DNA of 64,000 bases, from assembly GCF_001625215.2 (NCBI RefSeq), contig NC_030387.2:25494517-25558516 (forward strand). Direction: 5' to 3'. The notes under the pieces are model-generated. The model ran no database searches and was not told the DNA's origin. It worked only from the letters and a program-made list of their open reading frames with translations. This DNA is from Daucus carota subsp. sativus. Its lineage: Eukaryota; Streptophyta; Magnoliopsida; Apiales; Apiaceae. Position 1 is the first letter of the stretch; each line of letters begins with the position of its first letter. The position numbers and the translations under genes were made by a program. Below, in pieces: positions 26,040 to 56,542 of this stretch.

Positions 26040-26745
26040 TTCATTCAATACATGTGTATTAGTCATATGTGGAAGCTGACAACAATGCATGCGACAAGAT
26101 TAAAGTCCAAATGGATTAACCAAATTATTGTTTAAATTATACTATAATGTGATTACGCAATGCTATTGGATCAACAACATCGGATTCAATTCACAAATTC
26201 CATTACTGTGCATGTGGGTCTTGAACTTGAAAACACCAACTCTGTATACTTCTGGGCAGCACTTAGCTGTATGTCCCAAGATTCTCGGACACCTCGGTCT
26301 CTAATTGGGTTAGGGTGTTTGCAATTGACTTTAATGAAGTTATTATAAACTAGTAACATTTGGGGTTCCAAATAGAAAAAACAAGGATTTCTATTTCTCA
26401 GGGACCATCTCTAATTGGAATTGACCATCTTAAAGATTCCGTCATAATTGTCCAGCTGATGAAATGGAGGATGGATGCATATACTACTATACAAGTGTAG
26501 TAAGAAGAAACAGACCTAAACATTGTATATTGTTCACCAATCAGGCTCACTGAAATTTAAATAATCTTTCAAGAATCCTGAGAATATTCCTTGGTCTTTT
26601 TTATATCCACCTAGCTACCTAGGCAAAAGATGCATTTTCTTGGCCTTGGCTTGGTAAGGGTTAGGGTGTAAATTTGATTTGAGCACAAATCGCCTGGCTA
26701 GTACTATCTGTTTTTATCATAATATCAGAATAATTATAGATTAAT

Positions 26746-28041
26746 GGGAAAATAGATTTTTTTGCCATCCAACTTATTATTTGTTTAGAAATCTACCACT
26801 GAACTATAATTTTTTTCTTTTTTGCCACTAATGTTAGGTTCGGATTTATTTTTTGTCACTAACGTTAGGTTCGGATTTGATTATTAACACTATGTTATTC
26901 TTTTTAGAGTTAATTGCATTTGACACCCCTTTGATTTCAGCATGTTGCATATTGCACCTAATAGTTTTGGAATAAACACTATGCAGCCCCTTACTTTTAA
27001 CCCATAGACACTTTGCACCCTTTCCGTTATCTTCTGCCATTACCGTTAACTTTTGAAGGGGCATTTTGGGAAATTTTATTATATTTAATTAAAATCAGGC
27101 CTTTATTTAAATTTTCCGACCATCTAAATGATATTTTTCGGAAATCTATTTTTCGGTAGTCTGCAATATAATAGTGATCTGTGTCTATATCTTTATATGT
27201 AGTACTCCATATGTGTCCTAGGTAGTTTATCTTAGAGGACGAGAGTACGGATTTTTTTACTCAGAAAGGAAATCTCAAAATTAACTTATGGAACTATATT
27301 TATAAAAAGTGGGAACCTTAAAATACGTGACAAGTAGTGGTAAATAACTGGTTCATGTAGTTTGCAGGCTATTGCCTGAGCTCGTGGGTTTACCCAGTGC
27401 GCACCCGAAGGGTAACGGCTGTGGGTTCCTACGTTAAAAAAAAAAAAGAACTATAAAGCCAAGTGATACTATATATTTGTGGAGTTTAAAAATAATTTAT
27501 AAAACAAAATTTTTTTAGGTTCTTAAAATGCCTGTTAAACTCTCGTACTTCATATGGATGACTGTATATAATGTTATAGACACATATCATATCATCATAA
27601 TATTGCAGACTACCACTATGTTTTTATAATGCTAAAAAAATAACATATTGTTAATAATCAAATCAAAACATAACGCTAGTGACAAAAAAAATCCAACGTT
27701 TTTTAAGGAAAAAAAACCAACATTAAATTTTATTCAGAAAAATTAAAATAAAATAATTTTTGAATTTTTTTGGAGTCTCAAAATGCGTGTCCAACTCTCG
27801 TCCTCCAAGGTAAACTACCTAAAGATATTGACACATATCATATCGCCATTATATTGCAGACTAGCACTATATTTTAATAATACTAAAAAAATAACATAGT
27901 GTTAATAATCAAATCCGAACCTAACGTTAGTGACAAAAAAAAATCCGAACCTAACATTAGTGACAAAAAAGAAAAAAGTTATAGTTCAGTGGTAGATTTC
28001 TAAACAAATAATAAGTTGGGTGACAAAAAATCTATTTTCCC
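26746..28041. mobile_element. Mutator-like long-TIR element with perfect 9-bp TSD and nested insertions
   Basis: TAGATTAAT occurs at 26737-26745 and 28042-28050. Ends are GGGAAAATAGATTTTTTTGC and its inverse. The arms match for about 160 bp at the outside. After an interruption at ~26909-27155 on the left, arm homology resumes (TAGTCTGCAATATAATAG...). The right side contains a second partial copy of the arm (27580-27700 after 27880-28041), so the TIR is internally repeated. A SINE 3' end sits at 27350. There is no transposase frame. The 9-bp TSD and long TIRs indicate MULE. Confidence 0.87.
27350..27449 (+). mobile_element. SINE 3' fragment (5'-truncated)
   Basis: The GGTTCATGTAGTTTGCAGG ... 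GTGGGTTCCTACGTT sequence plus an A-run equals the 3' half of the full SINE at 53129-53318 (minus strand there), with a small internal difference. It is nested in the Mutator-like element. Confidence 0.8.
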
Positions 28042-28550
28042 TAGATTAATTGAGCAATAATATTGCTCCAAATTGGTTAGCTAAGAAATTATCATCATTT
28101 GAAATTTTACACCAAATTAAAAGATTCTCAGAGTAGAGATAATGGGAGTGTTTCCTAGGTCTGATTCCAATGAGCTCTTGTATATGTAAATAAATTAAAA
28201 AAATGATGAAAAGTTAGCTCTACTCCGCATCTTGTTGGAATTTAGGTAAGTTCTAATAAATTATTTTTATATTTATCAGGAAAAATACGAAAATCAGATT
28301 TGTTTTGTTATAAACGATCAACACCATCATATCTATAATCAAATAAGCATTGCTTAGCAACAAGAGGTATATTTAGTTGAAATTAATTTAAAAAAATTAA
28401 ATGCACCTTTATTTAGTCAAGATTTAGAATTGCACTAACTCTTGGGATCTCAAAAAATCTAGTAATATTTAATACAATTTTAAATTAATCTGAATCAGTC
28501 CCTAAACGCTCTGATTTTATACTAAGCGGGGATTAAGCGTGTTTTAAAAT

Positions 28551-43455: not shown

Positions 43456-43974
43456 ATACACCGATTCAAACAAAAATTTAAGCAAATCAACGTTAAATAG
43501 ATAATTCTGTCAAAGAAAAAAGTTAAATAGATAATATTTCTTATCGAACATAACCCAACTTACATAGATAAATACTTTTGTGTCCAACCTAACCGAACTC
43601 AATAAACATAACAGGATGAAATTGGGAAAACTTCGTCTCTGAACTAATCATATACGATGAAATTGAGCATATCACTAATACAGAATCTCGATAATATGGG
43701 GAAGCTCTATTGTTTTCATTAAAAGTAAATCAATGTTTTGTAAAAATTAACTATTAAACCTATAACTTAATTAGTGTACATACATATAAATGCATTGCAA
43801 GTTGATCAAAGTAGGTAACCATGAGTTTCAGCCTAAAAGCAAGTGTTTGCTATTACAGCCAACTCTTAAGTTGAGTTTATTTGCGGCATAAATACATACA
43901 TATTGCATAATGGAAACCAAATTTGGGTAATCGTTTCACACAACAAACTTGAATACCAGGAGCATCAAAAAGGT

Positions 43975-46831
43975 TTACAAGTTATGTTTTCCAAGGAATG
44001 CGAGGATCAGCTGATTTACTTGGTCAGGCAATTGCTCGGGAGCAAAATGGGTTCCTTCAGGCAAAAATGTAATCTCATAATTTGGGGCAAAATGTTTCAC
44101 CTTTCCACTCCTTATGTAATCCTCTGTTCCGGGAAATTTGAGGACATAATCCTTCTCACCCATAATCAACATTGCAGGAACATCGATTCTTGGGTTCGAC
44201 ATGCTGAATTCTTCGGTAAAAGACCTGAAACAGAGCCACAAAACAAGATAGCAATAACAGATTATACACTTCAGTTGTAGCATAACGGATAGTCGGATAC
44301 GCCTCTTGTTGAACTAAGAGGGGCAAATTTCAATCTCAGCTAAAGTATGTAATGGGGCATTGCACCTTGATGTGATGAAATAACAAAATTGTATCTGGAA
44401 ATTTTATTTTATTGTGGGAAATCGATAAAAATTTTATTTAGCAAAAAAAAAAAAATCAATAATATTTTATGGCTACTGATGTGGTCATGTGGGGAGGGCC
44501 TTGGAAGACTTAACATATCAAAATAAAATGTCTATCTGCAAAGACTATTAGCATATGCATGCTTATCCATTCAGTTTCTACCAGGAACAAGTACTATGAA
44601 GCATTATAACGAAGTTTAAAAAGTTGACCTCCAAACCAAACTACATATTATATCCATTGCAGGCCATTGATGTTATAAAACAGTAGAATATATCATTGAA
44701 TACCATTTACCTATACGGAAATTTCAATGCAGTAGTAAACCCGGATTTTTCATATAGAGATCCATAGACAGCAAAATCTTCCTCGGTGAACCAAGGTGGT
44801 AAAGGAGTAGATGGGTCCACCAGATCCATGATCTCTTGGTTCTCCGCAGCTATAGGCAATTCACTTTTAGAGAATAATATATAGACGTTTCGCACTACCG
44901 TCTTAGCATCAAAGCGACCAAAATCAGCTTCAGCTCGTCCAGGAACCTGCATGATGATTAAAGACAAAAAACTGAAAGCCCAAAACTACCAAGTATACAG
45001 AGAAAACACTTTGACAAGTTGTTAAAGGTAAGCATCTCCTGAAATATTTCCACCACAACTTAGATCTAGAAGGATTATGGGATGGACAATTAATGATTGG
45101 CGGCAACCTTATGTAAACATCTTCTTACAAAGAGCTTGGGGGTCGTGATTGGAGGCAAAATAATGAACACACCCAAAAAAAAACAATTGAATAGATATAT
45201 ACCTGCCATCTGTTAATATAGAATCCCTCTGGAAGCTGTTTAAGGAATGTGCGGGGACCTGGGGGTGTGAATACAATACCCACTGATATAACTCCGCTGA
45301 CCCTAGTTGGGTGAAGTAGGGTGAAAAGATAAGCTGGGAACGCTCCAAAGTCTTTTGCAATCAGAATAACCTGCACTTTGTGCAAAACAACATATGTCGA
45401 CATCGTCACATTCCGTTGATATATATAATCACATTGAAACACATTAACATATAAAGGACATTTGGTGGTTCTGAAATTTTTTAAGGCGAAAAATGTCTTA
45501 CAGCACGTTCTTGTATACATGTATACATTTATAAGCAGGAAGTAACTAAATGTTAGACCAGTGCTCGCTGATGCAAAGCATAAACTCAGTTTCAGTCAGT
45601 CAAATTTTCCTTTCCCGTCTTTGACATAATGGATTAACTTGGGTAATATATAAAAACTGATATTCTAAAAGTTGTTACATACAGTAATTTTTAATTGAAA
45701 AGCTGGCTGCGAGCCAGCAAGTTTGAGTAATCTAAAACCTGCATTTCATATAGCACATTCATTTGTGTAATAGTAGCAAAAACTTAACCGACTCTATTCC
45801 AAACACTCCTTAAATTCTAAGGGCACTCACATGCTTCCTTAAGGTACCCTCTTCTCCGCCCTGCTGTTAAGACAACAACACACAAAGAGACCTTGGGATC
45901 GAGCACAGTTAAAAACAAATCTATCTAAAGTCTACACTGCAAAATGTTTCTCTAATATTAGATTTATAGGAAGCACTCAGAGTCCGGACCTTACATATTT
46001 AGGTGTACACAGAATTTCAACATATCACAAGTCCTAACAAGACAAATCATCAGTTCATCGTTTCATATTAATAAGCTAAACTAATTAATATATGAACGGA
46101 TAAGCAAGCCTGTTTATACAAGTATCTAAAATTCTGCAATTGATCGGAATAAAAGGCTCTATTCGGGAATTAGCGGTTAGCCGTTAACTGTTAGCAGATT
46201 GAATTAGATGTTTTGACTAGCTGATTAAAATAGATGTTTTGACTAGCGGATTGGATTAACGGTTTATTGTAAAACTGTTTGATTAGCTTTTTGTGACACA
46301 TATTAAAACCTCTCATCCAAAAAGCTCTTCAAAGTAGCTTTTTGAAAATTAGCTTTTTGAGCCAAAACCTCTATTTCAATCCGCCAACTATCAAACACCA
46401 GCATTAGCGGTTTCTAATTTTACCACAAACCTCTAACTTCCAAACATGGTCAAAATTAAACATCAAAAATCTTAATTTCTAAACAAAACCAACACCTCAA
46501 ATTTTAATATATGAAACCTGAACAACACTCATATAACAAACAGTACCTTAGGAATGGCCAGAGCATCAAGCAAAGCAAGAAGATCACTCAAACAATCAGC
46601 GTACGTGGTAGTCTCGGGTTGGGGTTTCGGGTCGGACAACCCGTAACCTCTAAGGTCAATAGCTATAGCTCTGTAGCCAGCTTCAGCAACGCAAGTCATC
46701 TGGTAACGCCACGTGTACCATATCTCGGGAAACCCATGAAGGAAAAGGATGGTTTTGGATCCGGATCCGAGCTCAGCGATGTGGAGCTTTGACCCGTTAA
46801 CTTGAATGTATTTGTGCTCCACTTTCTCCAT
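43975..46831 (-). CDS. Epoxide hydrolase-like alpha/beta hydrolase, 312 aa
   Basis: Exons on the minus strand: 46831-46547, 45370-45203, 44946-44711, 44224-43975; 939 nt, phases fit, stop at 43975-43977. Start MEKVEHKYIQVNG. The oxyanion motif HGFPE is at 32-36. The nucleophile elbow is AKDFGA with Asp102 (canonical epoxide hydrolases have GHDWGA, so Lys-Asp-Phe is this subfamily's variant). The cap domain has lid Tyr candidates in GFYINRWQ and AVYGSLY. Charge-relay Asp255 is in GEKDY and catalytic His289 in PEGTHF. The complete Asp-His-Asp set predicts activity. Plant members hydrolyse fatty-acid epoxides for cutin and defence. The substrate is unknown here, and a non-epoxide hydrolase role is possible because of the altered elbow. 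The third exon and neighbours are single-copy, but the last exon is duplicated at 47.5 kb. Confidence 0.9.
44275..44345 (+). mobile_element. tRNA-like SINE fragment in epoxide hydrolase intron 3
   Basis: TTGTAGCATAACGGATAGTC followed by CCTCTTGTTGAACTAAGAGG has the look of a tRNA-derived SINE head. The same sequence occurs at 48096 in the duplicated segment, and a relative lies at 60755. Confidence 0.5.
46155..46402. mobile_element. hAT-like MITE in epoxide hydrolase intron 1
   Basis: Left GGCTCTATTCGGGAATTAGCGG with repeated TTAGCGG-type motifs. Right, inverse, gives GGTGTTTGATAGTTGGCGG. An internal direct repeat AGATGTTTTGACTAGC occurs twice (46207, 46231). Borders are approximate and no TSD was seen. 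Confidence 0.5.
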
Positions 46832-47529
46832 CTTTTAGACCCCTACCGACCAGTCTGTGTTAACAGTGTGCAACTTGAAAGTCCAAAAGGGAAACTATAC
46901 ATGTTGAAATAAAGGAAGGTGGTCGCGCCGTCGTGGTCGGCTTGTTTTTACAATTATACCCTTTATTCCGTTTGGCTCCGGCCGGCCGGAGGACAGTATA
47001 TCGACATCATTTATATTCTAAATTCGTAAAATTTGTATTATTTCTTTTGATTATACATATTTTTGATAATGATTGTTTGACTTCAATTCTAAATCTTAAA
47101 AAAAGTCCTTGAATATTAAATAAATGTAGTCTTTTATGAGATTGTTCGTTGTATTTTAAATTTGTCTTTGAACTAATCATCTTATGCATATCTTCAACCG
47201 TTGACATTTATTAACTATGATGATGATATAATTTTTATAGTCTGGAATCTCGATTGATAAAGCTCTAACTTTTTTCATTAAAAGTAAAATCATTTGTAAA
47301 CTATAAAATCTATAATTAGTGTACATTCATTTGAATAAATGAATTGTAAGGTGATCAAAGTTGGTGACCATGAGTTTCAGCCTAAAGGCAAATTTTTTCT
47401 ATTACAACCAACTCGTAAGTTGAATTTATTTGCTGCATACATATTACACAATGGAAACCAAATTTTGGCAATCGTTTCACACAACACACAACAAACTTGA
47501 ATACCAGGAAAATAAAGATGGGTTACAAG

Positions 47530-47782
47530 TTATGTTTTCCAAGGAAGGTGAGTTATGAGTATCAGCTGGTTTACTTGGTGGGGCAATTGCTCGTGAGCAA
47601 AATGGGTTGTTCCTTCAGGCAAAAATGTAATCTCATAGTTTGGGGCAAAATGTTTCACCTTTCCACTCCTTATGTAATTTTCTTGTCCTGGAAATTTGAG
47701 GACATAATCCTTCTCACCCATAATCAACATTGCAGGAACATCAATTCTTGGGTTTGACATGTTAAATTCTTCGTTAAAAGAC
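47530..47782 (-). pseudogene. Duplicate of only the last exon of the epoxide hydrolase gene
   Basis: This minus-strand segment encodes a copy of exon 4 from SFNEEFNMSNPRID through GEKDYVLKFPG to LPEGTTHF, beginning right after an intact acceptor AG and about 85-90 percent like the functional exon. It carries one extra Thr before the catalytic His and a different C-terminal end, caused by small insertions near the stop. No copies of exons 1-3 occur next to it, and it lies upstream of (beyond) the parent gene's start. Flanking DNA on both sides is also duplicated (about 43640-44330 versus 47210-48160). Without its other exons it is a dead fragment unless spliced to something unseen. Confidence 0.85.
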
Positions 47783-47812
47783 CTGAAACAGTACCACAAA
47801 ACAAGATATATA

Positions 47813-48593: not shown

Positions 48594-48842
48594 GGCCGTT
48601 TGGGACTTTGGGTGAGCTAATAAGTGCTTCCCGCTAACGTAAAAAAGTGATGGAGAAGTTAGAAGCAAGTTAAGACTTACAAGTGATTAAAGTGTTTGGG
48701 AGAAAAGTAGAATTCATGAAACAAAGGCTAGTATTCCAACCTTCTTTTAAGTACTTCTTTGACTTTTTACATATACGGTACGAATAAGTGCTTCTAACTT
48801 ATAAACCAAAAAGTGAGGCTAATAAGCATTTGCCAAACATCA
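48594..48842. mobile_element. hAT-like MITE
   Basis: Left GGGGCCGTTTGGGACTTTGG; right GCATTTGCCAAACATCACTT. Inner inverse blocks include GCTAATAAGTGCTTC versus GAAGCACTTATTAG-type sequence and GAAGTTAGAAGC versus GCTTCTAACTT. Approximately 250 bp. No TSD identified. Confidence 0.55.
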
Positions 48843-48926
48843 CTTATAAGCATGCATGAAGAAGAAACAGTGGTACTAAATAACGACAAAGAGCATCATG
48901 ACTAATACTCAACAATACTCAACAAT

Positions 48927-50668
48927 TTAAACCATGAAAACTTCCTCCTGGGAATCCAGCTGATCATAATCTTTGAGGAACACCTCAAGATGAAGAGCAA
49001 GGGATGATTTATGGGTATTTTCACCGTGATAAGATTTGCAGACAAAGTAGATGATCGTCTGGATTACAAGTCCGAAGAGACTAAACATAGACACCACCAT
49101 AGCCCAAAGACATGCATGCAATATCTTTCCCCACACTGATTCTCCACGCACCACACTGGCCTTAAAACCTTGGTCAATTACAAGATAACATAGGCTTAGT
49201 ACCACCAAAACCGCAGCACTAAGTCCAGTCTTTCCCTTAATCAAATTTCTGCTCTTCTTCATGGCTTGAATTCCATGTACGTCCTCTAAAACGGATACGA
49301 TGTTCGCTAACTGCCACACCAAGCCCATATACAGAGTCCCCAACAAAATAATTCCTCCTAAAATTAAGAGGATGATGATAACCGGAATGCTAGGGGTACT
49401 TGGTACAGTGCCAGAAGTAATTACAACCACAAATACCACTATAAATATTATAAGTGAGACACCCATGATCACTGCAAAAGAAACGATGAAAATCCAAAAG
49501 AAAGTGATCAGAAGTCCTTTCAAGACCTTGGGAACCACTTTCATGACCTTCTTGTAGGTTGTTTCTCTGGCACTGTAAATGCATGCAATGGTGAATACAA
49601 CGGCTGATGTCGAAACGAGGGAAAGTAATATCGAAAGAATGGAAAACGCTATCTTGAATAGCCAATACGAGGTCGTCATCTCGGATGAGAAGATATCTGG
49701 GGTGTTGGCATATGTTTGAGATCCCATCAGGGCCGGCTCAACTGAATATGAGGCCCTAAGCAAGAATTTAATGGAGGCCCTTTTCTCTATATAAAAAAAT
49801 ATTTTTATTTTATTTAATATATAAATTTATGTATTATTTATAATAAATTTTTATTTAATACTTATTTTTATATTTGAAATAATTTACAATTTGGATTCTT
49901 ATAAAATAAATTATACATAAAAATTATTTATGAGAACATAATAATAATACTTACATTTTACACAAAATTTATACGTCATGTTATATATTGTTCTTTTTAT
50001 TTTTAGGCTAATTTGTATATTAATATAACATTTAAACTAATAAAATTTAAAAAAAATACTATAACATAAAGATATAAATTACATAATTTATGATAACGTA
50101 AAACTTATGAAAAGTAAAATAGATTTTAAAAATATGCGTATTATATTTATTAAGTACTTACAAACATCACTGAAAAATTCGAAATCATTTGCTTCTTCTA
50201 ATTCTCATTTTTTAAGTTAATCTTATTTTTATTTATTAATAATTCCTTATTGTATATATATATATATATACTCTTTTTAAAGTATAATAATTCATATTTT
50301 TTTAATATTTTTTTCATAAATACAAATCAAAATTTAATTATTATAACCTAAACATATATATAATTATAAAAATTTGAGGCCCTCCTTTGAGTTGGGGCCC
50401 TAAGCAACCGCTTAGTTGGCTTTACTGTTGAGCCGGCCCTGGATCCCATTTGAGTATCATCAGTGACATCCTTACTAGGGCTGATTTCATTTTCTCCGAA
50501 CACGAATCCGGAGATTTCATTTTGAGACACGTAAATGAAAGAAAGAGGGAGGATAACGGAGAGTGTTATTTGGGTGAAAATCTTTTTGTGTGAGGTTGTG
50601 ATATTGAAGGCTTCTTTGAAGATGCCCAAGAAGCCAAGATATTGGAATTTTTCTTGTTCTGTGTCCAT
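48927..50668 (-). pseudogene. Polytopic membrane protein gene, paralogue A, split by a hAT insertion
   Basis: Minus-strand frame from ATG 50668 (MDTEQEKFQYLGFLGIFKEA) runs to 50442. It is interrupted by the element at 49728-50441 and resumes at 49727 (QTYANTPDIFSSE) to the stop at 48927. Host sequence without the element and one TSD copy is 1020 nt, equal to a 339-residue frame with no other break, so the insertion is the only visible lesion. Read-through enters the element and stops after about 30 foreign residues, before four of the five predicted membrane segments. The closest relative is the intact paralogue at 54893-55909. The family is a plant-specific group of multi-pass proteins (similar to At5g44860/At4g19950) with no settled function. 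Whether a shortened transcript from the inner ATG at 49763 is used is unknown. Confidence 0.9.
49728..50441. mobile_element. Non-autonomous hAT element inside a coding exon, 8-bp TSD GATCCCAT
   Basis: GATCCCAT stands at 49720-49727 and 50442-50449. TIRs are CAGGGCCGGCTCAA at both ends, with further subterminal GAGGCCCTAAGC motifs. The 714-bp interior is very AT-rich and non-coding. Perfect TSD and matching terminal bases indicate a recent insertion. Confidence 0.95.
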
Positions 50669-51617
50669 TGGAATGAGGATATAATTTTGATAAGAAAGCT
50701 GAAGGGAAATGCTAGTATGCTATAGGTTTAAATAAAGATATCCGTCGTGAATAGATTCAAATTGTGCAGACCCAATATTTTCTTATCGCCCATCTTCTCG
50801 ATTTCATCGTCTAAAAATGATTAAGGGGTCACTTGAAGTGTTGAAGTCAAAAACACAACGACAAAGAATAGATCAGGGGTTTAGAATTTTGTTTCTATAT
50901 GGTTTTAGGTTGAGTTATATATGAAGTAAGTTTTTATCTTTCTAAAGTTGTCAAATCACATCGAAATCAAGATATTTTTGTCAGATTAGTTTTATCCCTC
51001 ATGAAATATATATCTTTGTATATTAAAAACTCTTTTAGTCATAAATTCATTCTTAATTTATTGTCTAACTTATATATTTTTCTTAACTTTGTTCATAACT
51101 TAGTAAGTATCATTTTTCTTATGAGCTATCTTTTTTAAAATTCTTGTGGATCATTCTTTCGTTTCGATGTATATGATCCTTTTGATTTAGTATGCATGGA
51201 GGTGCATTTTTATGAATATATTATAATTAAGACGTATGATTATTTGTTCACGATGCTTGAATATATATCATGAACATCAAACTCACCTTATCTGTCATTA
51301 GATTAAAAAAACAAATTATTGAAATTAAATCATTATATAGAAACATATTAGATATAATTGTGTACTAACTAATTCAAATATCATGAACATCAAACTCACC
51401 TTGACAGTTGCAGATGATATAAAATTATACACGATCACTCGATCAACCAATATAATTAAATGAATCACTTCGGAAAAGAAAAAGAAAAGACTCATCATTG
51501 TTCATAGAACAATTTTAATGGAACTCGACAAATAATTCTGTTGTAGAACAATAATCTGCCTTCTTGATATTATAAGATGAAACTAAAAGAATAATTGAAG
51601 GTTTTTCATTTTGATTC

Positions 51618-54401: not shown

Positions 54402-54892
54402 AATTATACTATATTGACTTATTACAATATAGTATATATAGAGTATAGATTTGATGGGAACCGATCCCCTCAAATAAATTACATGCATGTCATATCATAA
54501 GTGTCATGTATCTTTAGATAAATTTGTGTAATACCCAATGGTTGACATCACAGTGATTGATCTGAATTGTTCAACGAATGTATTATAATTTATATAATTA
54601 TTATCTTGTAGTATTCTTTAAATTTATAGAACCTGGTCGTCGGAGACCTTATAGTACTCCATACAAGCTAGAGAAACAGTGAAGTGATCATACTCGTATG
54701 CAAGCTAGAGAAACAGTCGTAGGTACACGCTAATTACAACAATCATCAGTGTACAATAATAATCTCAGAAAGTTGCAAGTAAAATATCTTTACAATCCAG
54801 TACACAACATATATATTTCAGTCTTTTAACTTATAAGCATGAAGAAGAAACAGTGGTACTTATAAATAACAACGAAAAAGAACATCAGGAAT

Positions 54893-55909
54893 TTAAACCA
54901 TGGAAACCTCCTCCTGGGAATCCAGCTGATCATAATCTTTGTGGAACACCTCAAGACGATGAGCAAGCGATGATTTCCCGATAGTCTCACCGTGATAAGA
55001 TTTGCAGACGAAGTAGATGATGGTCTGGATGACAAGTCCCAAGAGACTCAATATAGACATTAGCATAGCCCAAAGACATGCATGCAATATCTTTCCCCAC
55101 ACCGAATCTCCACCCACCACACTGGCCTTAAACCCTAGGTCAATTCCAAGAAAACATAGGTTAAGTACCACCAAAACGGCAGCACAAAGTCCAGAATTTC
55201 CCTTGATCAAATTTTTGCTCTTCTTCATGGCTTGAATTCCATGGACGTCCTCTAAAACGGATACGATGTTCGCTAATTGCCACACCAAGCTCATATACAG
55301 AATACCCAACAAAATTATTCCTCCAAAAACTAAGAGGAGGATCATAACTGGAACTCCAGGGGTACTTGGTACACCAGAAGTAATTACAACCAGAAATACC
55401 ACTAAAAATATTATAAGTGAGACGCCCATGATGACCGCAAAAGAAATAATGAAAATCCAGAAGAAAGTGATTAAAAGTCCTTTAAGAACCTTGGGAACCA
55501 CTTTCATGACCTTCTTATAAGTTGTTTCTTTGGCGCTGTAAATGCATGCAACGGTGAAAACAACGGCGGATGTCGAAACGAGGGAAAGTAATATCGAAGA
55601 AATGAAGAAGGCTAGCTTGAATAGCCAAAACGAGGTCGTCTCGGATGAGAAGATATTTGGAGGGTTGGCATATGTTTGAGATTCCATTTGAGTATCATCA
55701 GTGAAATTTGTACTAGGGCTGATGATTTCATTTTGTCCGAACACGAATCCGGAGATTTCGTTTTGCGACACGTAGATGAAAGAAAGAGGGAGGATAAGAG
55801 AGAGTGTTATTTGGGTGAAAATCTTTTTGTGTGAGGTGGTGATATTGAAGGCTTCTTTGAAGATGCCTAAGAAGCTGAGAAATCGGAATTTTTCTTGGTC
55901 TCTGTCCAT
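54893..55909 (-). CDS. Polytopic membrane protein, paralogue B (intact), 338 aa
   Basis: Single exon from ATG 55909 (MDRDQEKFRFLSFLGIFKEA) to stop. Hydrophobic spans near residues 30-48, 93-125, 138-175, 180-215, 235-258 and 275-305 predict five or six membrane helices. A conserved cytosolic stretch CIYSAKETTYKKVMKVVPKV lies between two of them, and a charged C-terminus ends in SQEEVSMV. There is a clear motif YMSLVWQLANIVSVLEDVHG. The protein has no recognised catalytic residues. The family has plant homologues of unknown role (At5g44860-like). It is a tandem copy of the gene at 48927-50668 in the same orientation. Both the 3' flank (CTTATAAGCATGAAGAAG) and about 80 bp of upstream sequence with a TTTATTTAAAC motif are shared, so the duplication included promoter and terminator. 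With paralogue A broken, this is likely the only working local copy. Confidence 0.88.
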   Translation of the reverse strand: MDRDQEKFRFLSFLGIFKEAFNITTSHKKIFTQITLSLILPLSFIYVSQNEISGFVFGQNEIISPSTNFTDDTQMESQTYANPPNIFSSETTSFWLFKLAFFISSILLSLVSTSAVVFTVACIYSAKETTYKKVMKVVPKVLKGLLITFFWIFIISFAVIMGVSLIIFLVVFLVVITSGVPSTPGVPVMILLLVFGGIILLGILYMSLVWQLANIVSVLEDVHGIQAMKKSKNLIKGNSGLCAAVLVVLNLCFLGIDLGFKASVVGGDSVWGKILHACLWAMLMSILSLLGLVIQTIIYFVCKSYHGETIGKSSLAHRLEVFHKDYDQLDSQEEVSMV

Positions 55910-56542
55910 TGGAAAGAAAAGAGGATATAGATTTGATAAGAAAGCTGAAGGGAAATGCTACGTTTAAATAAAAATATCCGCCGTGGGCTTCACGGGAGGG
56001 TCTTCCTTGACTTTTCAAATTTAAGATTATTATTGCTTTAATTTAGTGCTACTGTGCGAATGTGGAAATAGTCGACAGTCGGACCCAGATATTATTGAAT
56101 GTGGAAATTTTTATTGCTTGACAATGATTTTGTACTCACGGACAAGTTCGACTGGGATACTATTTATATATCAGATAAATATATATATCATAGTCATCGT
56201 TCTTTGCAGTCCCAATTACTTGTAATAGACTAATTAAGGCATCTTTCATTATGCAATTACCTAAGCATTTTCGTCCAGAGCACCTATTGGATGCTTAACC
56301 AAATTTTCATTAACCGATACTTAATCATTCACAAAGTACAAACCAAGTGAAATTCTCTCTTCAACTTGCAATTCTTTTACCAACCACAGTGTTATATATA
56401 CCGGCTACAAGACAAGTTGGATAAGAATGTCATGCAAGACTGTAACATATAGTTTAGCGATGTTTACAAGTATAGAATGTTACGTTCTTCTCAGCAGCAG
56501 TCGTAGCATAGAGAGTTTAAATGGAAACAAAGGCCAGGAAAG

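What the first reader, a model, noticed from the sequence alone, without database searches (positions are those of the whole stretch)
49720..50449. Fresh hAT insertion splits a coding exon; it is the only lesion
A 714-bp element with perfect 8-bp TSD (GATCCCAT) and matching CAGGGCCGGCTCAA ends lies inside the first quarter of a membrane-protein gene. Host DNA minus the element and one TSD copy is 1020 nt, an exact 340-codon frame without other stops, and the paralogue at 54893 shows the ancestral state. The element is therefore recent, may still be polymorphic, and could create a knock-out or a new splice form.
Basis: seen in the sequence. Interest (0 to 1): 0.75.

Follow-up and report, generated by a model that had tools for sequence, protein, structure and literature searches.

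The report
Jumping-gene insertion interrupts a carrot gene
A short, recently moved DNA transposon of a known type sits inside the coding sequence of one of two neighbouring plant membrane-protein genes, most likely disabling that copy; this is an ordinary kind of mutation, with a small chance that the plant splices the insert out as a new intron.

Summary
A 714-bp element (49728-50441) with exact 15-bp inverted ends lies between exact 8-bp duplications (GATCCCAT) after codon 73 of a single-ORF, 339-codon membrane-protein gene (48927-50668, minus strand). Neighbour paralogue 54893-55909 lacks it. The genome held with the window matches the published carrot DH1 v3 assembly in size. There the element is one of a family of non-autonomous hAT-like MITEs: 15 of 28 copies examined, its own included, have perfect 8-bp duplications at the exact ends. 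It carries 1-2 private substitutions against its nearest relatives, so it probably inserted within the last 1.5 My (rates recalled).

"Only lesion" holds for start and reading frame. It is less safe for function: this copy's branch shows no detectable purifying selection, although that rests on few synonymous changes. Most likely outcome: a disrupted copy with a 106-aa truncated frame. A predicted intron would instead give a 350-aa protein; 1-2% of controls score as high. No transcripts were available and polymorphism is untested. Carrot hAT-like MITEs in genes, with splice variants, are published. New member of a known kind; interest low.

The parts
49728..50441 (.). Non-autonomous hAT-like MITE, 714 bp, 20% GC, longest Met ORF 39 aa
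49720..49727 (.). Target-site duplication, copy 1 (GATCCCAT)
50442..50449 (.). Target-site duplication, copy 2 (GATCCCAT)
49728..49742 (+). Terminal inverted repeat, 15 bp
   Evidence: (I16)
50427..50441 (-). Terminal inverted repeat, 15 bp, exact complement
   Evidence: (I16)
50450..50668 (-). Gene A, 5' part: start codon and codons 1-73
48927..49727 (-). Gene A, 3' part: rest of the coding sequence including one TSD copy, to the stop
54893..55909 (-). Gene B, paralogue without the element, 338 aa, hydrophobic multi-pass protein without a Pfam match above cut-off
49787..50475 (-). Candidate cryptic intron, 689 nt: donor in the exon at 50475, acceptor inside the element, exon resuming at 49786; would leave a 350-aa frame (prediction only)

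Best explanation
A hAT-family transposase, supplied by an autonomous element elsewhere in the genome (inferred), inserted a 714-bp non-autonomous MITE into the single coding exon of gene A and left the usual 8-bp duplication (shown by anatomy). In this genome the copy most likely makes a 106-residue truncated product, 73 codons of the gene and then duplication and element sequence to a stop (frame shown, expression inferred). Paralogue B keeps an intact frame. The insertion is recent, of the order of 0.05 to 1.5 million years (mutation rates recalled).
For: Exact TIRs and TSD. Of 28 copies examined in the same genome, the window's own included, 15 have identical 8-bp duplications at the exact ends, 1 more with a 1-bp shift, 3 with one mismatch and 9 no clear pair; the duplications differ in sequence between sites. 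The window copy shows 1-2 private substitutions and one 2-bp private indel against its nearest copies. The frame from A's ATG runs 106 aa to a stop in the element. The joined flanks are open.
Against: No transcript or read data: loss of function is inferred. No autonomous partner was found: by eye, no listed hAT domain match lies within 6 kb of a listed MITE or MITE-end match, but those lists are capped. A cryptic intron could restore a frame.
Confidence: 0.78

Rival explanations
1. The element is spliced out as part of a new intron: donor 50475 in the exon, acceptor in the element before 49786, giving a 350-aa protein in which 9 residues between the first and second hydrophobic segments are replaced by 20.
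For: Best-scoring near-full-length in-frame pair; a fraction 0.013 of 300 shuffled elements and 0.018 of 400 AT-rich window pieces score as high. The insert is 80% AT. Placed at the site, 5 of 17 other family copies (L002-L006) give the same 350-aa result. The site lies in a stretch with gaps in the family alignment. Published carrot hAT-like MITEs change splicing (PMC8227079, section 10 read), and an exonic ONSEN insertion was intronized in Arabidopsis (PMC12112155, passages).
Against: The donor is weak (CTA|GTAAGG, score 2.0) and the splice tables are recalled and uncalibrated. In the wider scan a pair 50475 to 49471 scores higher in frame (6.9 against 5.7; 245 aa, a damaged protein); could not see it because acceptors were limited to 150 nt past the element. 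The best pair near the element regardless of frame restores nothing. 12 of 17 other family copies do not give this result. No transcripts.
Confidence: 0.12
2. Gene A was already a relaxed or decaying duplicate before the insertion, so the element hit a gene that no longer mattered. (Not exclusive with the best explanation.)
For: omega of A above B in 14 of 14 model settings, p below 0.05 in 11 of 14; omega A = 1 not rejected in 14 of 14 (A ranged 0.66-12, B 0.06-0.23). Main model A 1.8, B 0.18, p = 0.005.
Against: No stop or frameshift in 1020 nt. Letting A alone differ from all other branches gives p = 0.06 only. The signal comes mainly from few synonymous changes on A (4 vs 14, p = 0.03); nonsynonymous counts do not differ (21 vs 16, p = 0.51). 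None of 23 A replacements falls at a position invariant in the ten other family members; the same is true of B's 14, so this says little.
Confidence: 0.35
3. Assembly artefact at this site.
For: No reads were available to exclude it.
Against: Precise TSD at precise element ends, as at other sites of the family; the published assembly used long reads (PMC10581907, passages).
Confidence: 0.02

Closest known systems
Carrot hAT-like MITEs (Macko-Podgorni et al. 2021, PMC8227079; abstract, passages, sections 10 and 12 seen)
   Same: Short non-autonomous elements grouped as hAT-like by their duplications, found in gene bodies; 3637 copies reported, relatively more frequent in coding regions and UTRs
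   Different: Their family sequences and annotation are in supplements I could not open, so I cannot say which of their families this copy belongs to or whether this site is listed
Ds/Ac-type exon insertions partly spliced from transcripts (recalled)
   Same: hAT element in an exon with possible cryptic splicing
   Different: No transcript evidence here; sequence not compared
Introners (PMC9860276, search listing only)
   Same: A DNA element that could become an intron
   Different: No evidence that this family makes introns at many sites; not tested

Membership tests
hAT superfamily (non-autonomous member) | 8-bp target-site duplication | tested here: met
   Exact at the window site; of 28 copies 15 exact, 1 shifted by 1 bp, 3 with one mismatch, 9 unclear
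hAT superfamily (non-autonomous member) | Short terminal inverted repeats (hAT-type CAG start recalled) | tested here: met
   15 bp exact, beginning CAGGG
hAT superfamily (non-autonomous member) | Mobilised by a hAT transposase from an element with the same ends | tested here: inconclusive
   Many hAT domains in the genome. No element pairing these ends with a transposase in 30 fetched loci, but only 27 are hAT loci and 20 of those hold just 3.5-3.7 kb, so ends may lie outside
MITE | Short, no coding capacity, many related copies, AT-rich | tested here: met
   714 bp, 20% GC, longest Met ORF 39 aa; 40 scored candidate places of 289
hATpin (hairpin hAT MITEs) | Highly stable secondary structure | tested here: inconclusive
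   Fold z = -4.7 against 20 shuffles; no sequence comparison with hATpin was made
Introner | Element creates introns at many genic sites | not tested
   No transcript data

The most novel reading that the evidence does not exclude
A very young hAT MITE has become an intron in one step: an exonic GTAAGG present in gene A but not in B pairs with an acceptor carried by this MITE subfamily, so that a gene without introns now makes a 350-aa variant with a new loop.
Probability: 0.1. Interest if true: 0.5.

Novelty: new member of a known kind. Interest (0 to 1): 0.22.

Why it matters
As it stands it is one more recent MITE insertion, useful as a presence/absence marker and as a natural knock-out candidate for an unnamed plant membrane-protein family. 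If the insert is spliced it would be a clean, dated case of intron gain from a hAT MITE, testable with existing carrot RNA-seq.

Tried and rejected
Autonomous partner: I searched hAT domains PF14291 and PF05699 and the two MITE ends in the whole genome and scanned 30 fetched loci for paired ends. The one pair found was another MITE copy (L071). Of the 30, 27 are hAT loci (20 of 3.5-3.7 kb, 7 of 9.5 kb, five of these seven covering places already in the 20) and 3 are others, so elements reaching beyond the stretch were missed. Distances between domain hits and ends were judged by eye on capped lists; the nearest seen was about 6.2 kb (C5:10573141 to 10579354). The idea that a chromosome-9 array of MITE copies is ribosomal DNA was rejected: no Rfam match in L071. 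Paper searches with the terminal motif gave nothing useful. Pfam did not name the host family above cut-off (one relative, L017, matched PF10110 at E = 0.0008, below cut-off). A kinship to an Arabidopsis transmembrane family is recalled only and not used.

An earlier count said 17 of 18 copies have ends and duplication; the counts given here replace it.

Full report
The observation. The window holds a 714-bp element at 49728-50441 with exact 15-bp terminal inverted repeats and exact 8-bp duplications GATCCCAT on both sides. It interrupts a minus-strand gene (A) after codon 73. Joining the flanks with one duplication copy gives 1020 nt, 339 codons and a stop, with no internal stop. Paralogue B (54893-55909, minus, 338 aa) has no element and differs from A's target site by one base. 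A and B differ by three indels, all whole codons. Homology between the copies covers about 48842-50749 and 54829-55985, including some 80 bp upstream of the start. Both encode proteins with several hydrophobic segments and no Pfam match above cut-off.

The genome. The genome held with the window has 441,086,747 bases in 11 contigs. The lengths of contigs C1 to C9, as printed, add up to 440.71 Mb, the longest 64.56 and C4 51.15 Mb. The published carrot DH1 v3 assembly is 440.7 Mb in nine chromosomes, longest 64.5, scaffold N50 51.1 (PMC10581907, passages). I infer carrot from this match of sizes; no record name was seen.

The element family. A DNA search scored 40 candidates of 289 and gave 68 matches. 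I examined 28 copies, the window's own included. Identical 8-bp duplications at the exact ends: 15 of 28; one more with a 1-bp shift (L032); three with one mismatch (L007, L008, L040); nine without a clear pair, several of them truncated or embedded. The duplications differ in sequence from site to site, as independent insertions require. The element has no Met ORF over 39 aa and is 20% GC. It is therefore a non-autonomous hAT-like MITE. No mobilising partner was identified.

Age. In a tree of 18 copies the window copy has a terminal branch of 0.0028 (the right end of L004 was misaligned there). Against L002, L003, L005 and L006 it has one private substitution, which the more distant L007 shares, a second where L006 has a gap, and a 2-bp indel. 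Two substitutions in 714 bp (95% interval 0.24-7.2) correspond to 0.05-1.4 My at 7e-9 per site per year and 0.03-0.8 My at 1.3e-8 (both rates recalled). Part of the change may predate the move, so this leans old. The open host frame agrees weakly: 3.7% of random substitutions in A would make a stop. Recent, then, but 'polymorphic' is untested.

Is it the only lesion? For frame and start, yes. For function it is less clear. About 100 substitutions separate A and B; 55 could be polarised with two outgroup paralogues: 21 nonsynonymous and 4 synonymous on A, 16 and 14 on B; 13 more fitted neither copy and the rest had disagreeing or gapped outgroups. Fisher p = 0.022. A codon model gives omega 1.8 on A and 0.18 on B, p = 0.005 for a difference; A alone against all other branches gives 0.93, p = 0.06; omega A = 1 is not rejected. 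Over 14 settings of outgroup and codon frequencies A exceeded B in 14, with p below 0.05 in 11, and omega A = 1 was never rejected. Against this: the difference rests more on few synonymous changes in A (4 vs 14, p = 0.03) than on many nonsynonymous ones (21 vs 16, p = 0.51). None of 23 replacements on A, nor of 14 on B, hits a position invariant in ten other family members. I take it as suggestive of relaxation, not proof.

What it does. With the element retained, the frame from A's start ends after 106 aa inside the element. The downstream part could start at an ATG in the duplication (266 aa), but lacks the first hydrophobic segment. A splice scan with recalled consensus tables found, among near-full-length products, a best in-frame intron from 50475 to an acceptor before 49786, giving 350 aa; a fraction 0.013 of 300 shuffled elements and 0.018 of 400 AT-rich pieces of the window reach its score. 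Of 17 other family copies set at the site, 5 give the same result. The donor reads GTAAGG in A and GTACAA in B. In the wider scan a more damaging in-frame pair (245 aa) scores higher, outside the range that the controls covered, and the best pair near the element regardless of frame does not restore it. The prediction is a reason to look at RNA, no more.

Known context. Carrot hAT-like MITEs are published: 3637 copies, relatively frequent in coding regions and UTRs, intronic ones often kept in transcripts, with differential exon usage in five of 40 genes tested (PMC8227079, abstract, passages and sections 10 and 12). Exonic transposon intronization was seen for ONSEN in Arabidopsis (PMC12112155, passages). 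I saw no paper on this site, but my searches on carrot insertions did not name this gene, and supplements were not open to me. Verdict: a real, recent, ordinary insertion; a new member of a known kind.

Noticed in passing
L069 4676-5068 and L070 4611-5005 (C9:27668675-27669067; C4:46310110-46310504): The central 404 bp of this hAT MITE (query 140-543, 91% identical, ends absent) lie beside ORFs of two Mutator-like transposase genes; in L070 they lie between two such ORFs, as in an intron (PF03108 and PF10551 in L069, SWIM in L070). In a tree the pair falls among the MITE copies, so a MITE fragment probably moved into the transposase gene.
   Followed up: partly
C9 about 35.4-36.7 Mb; L071 3880-4502: Many very similar MITE copies; among eight neighbouring ones four of seven spacings are close to 10.0 kb, which suggests a tandem array carrying the element. 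The duplication (CACGGCCC) was read in one copy only. No Rfam match in L071.
   Followed up: partly
L025/L026 (C1:19471276-19472141): Another member of the host gene family has stops in both matched pieces (3 and 1) and looks like a pseudogene.
   Followed up: no
43683-44250 and 47245-47808: Direct duplicate, 83% identical over 590 aligned bp; one copy overlaps an ORF that looks like a hydrolase fragment (recalled resemblance; ORF).
   Followed up: no
26740-26907 and 27883-28050: Inverted repeat, 94% identical over 171 aligned bp, possibly another MITE pair.
   Followed up: no
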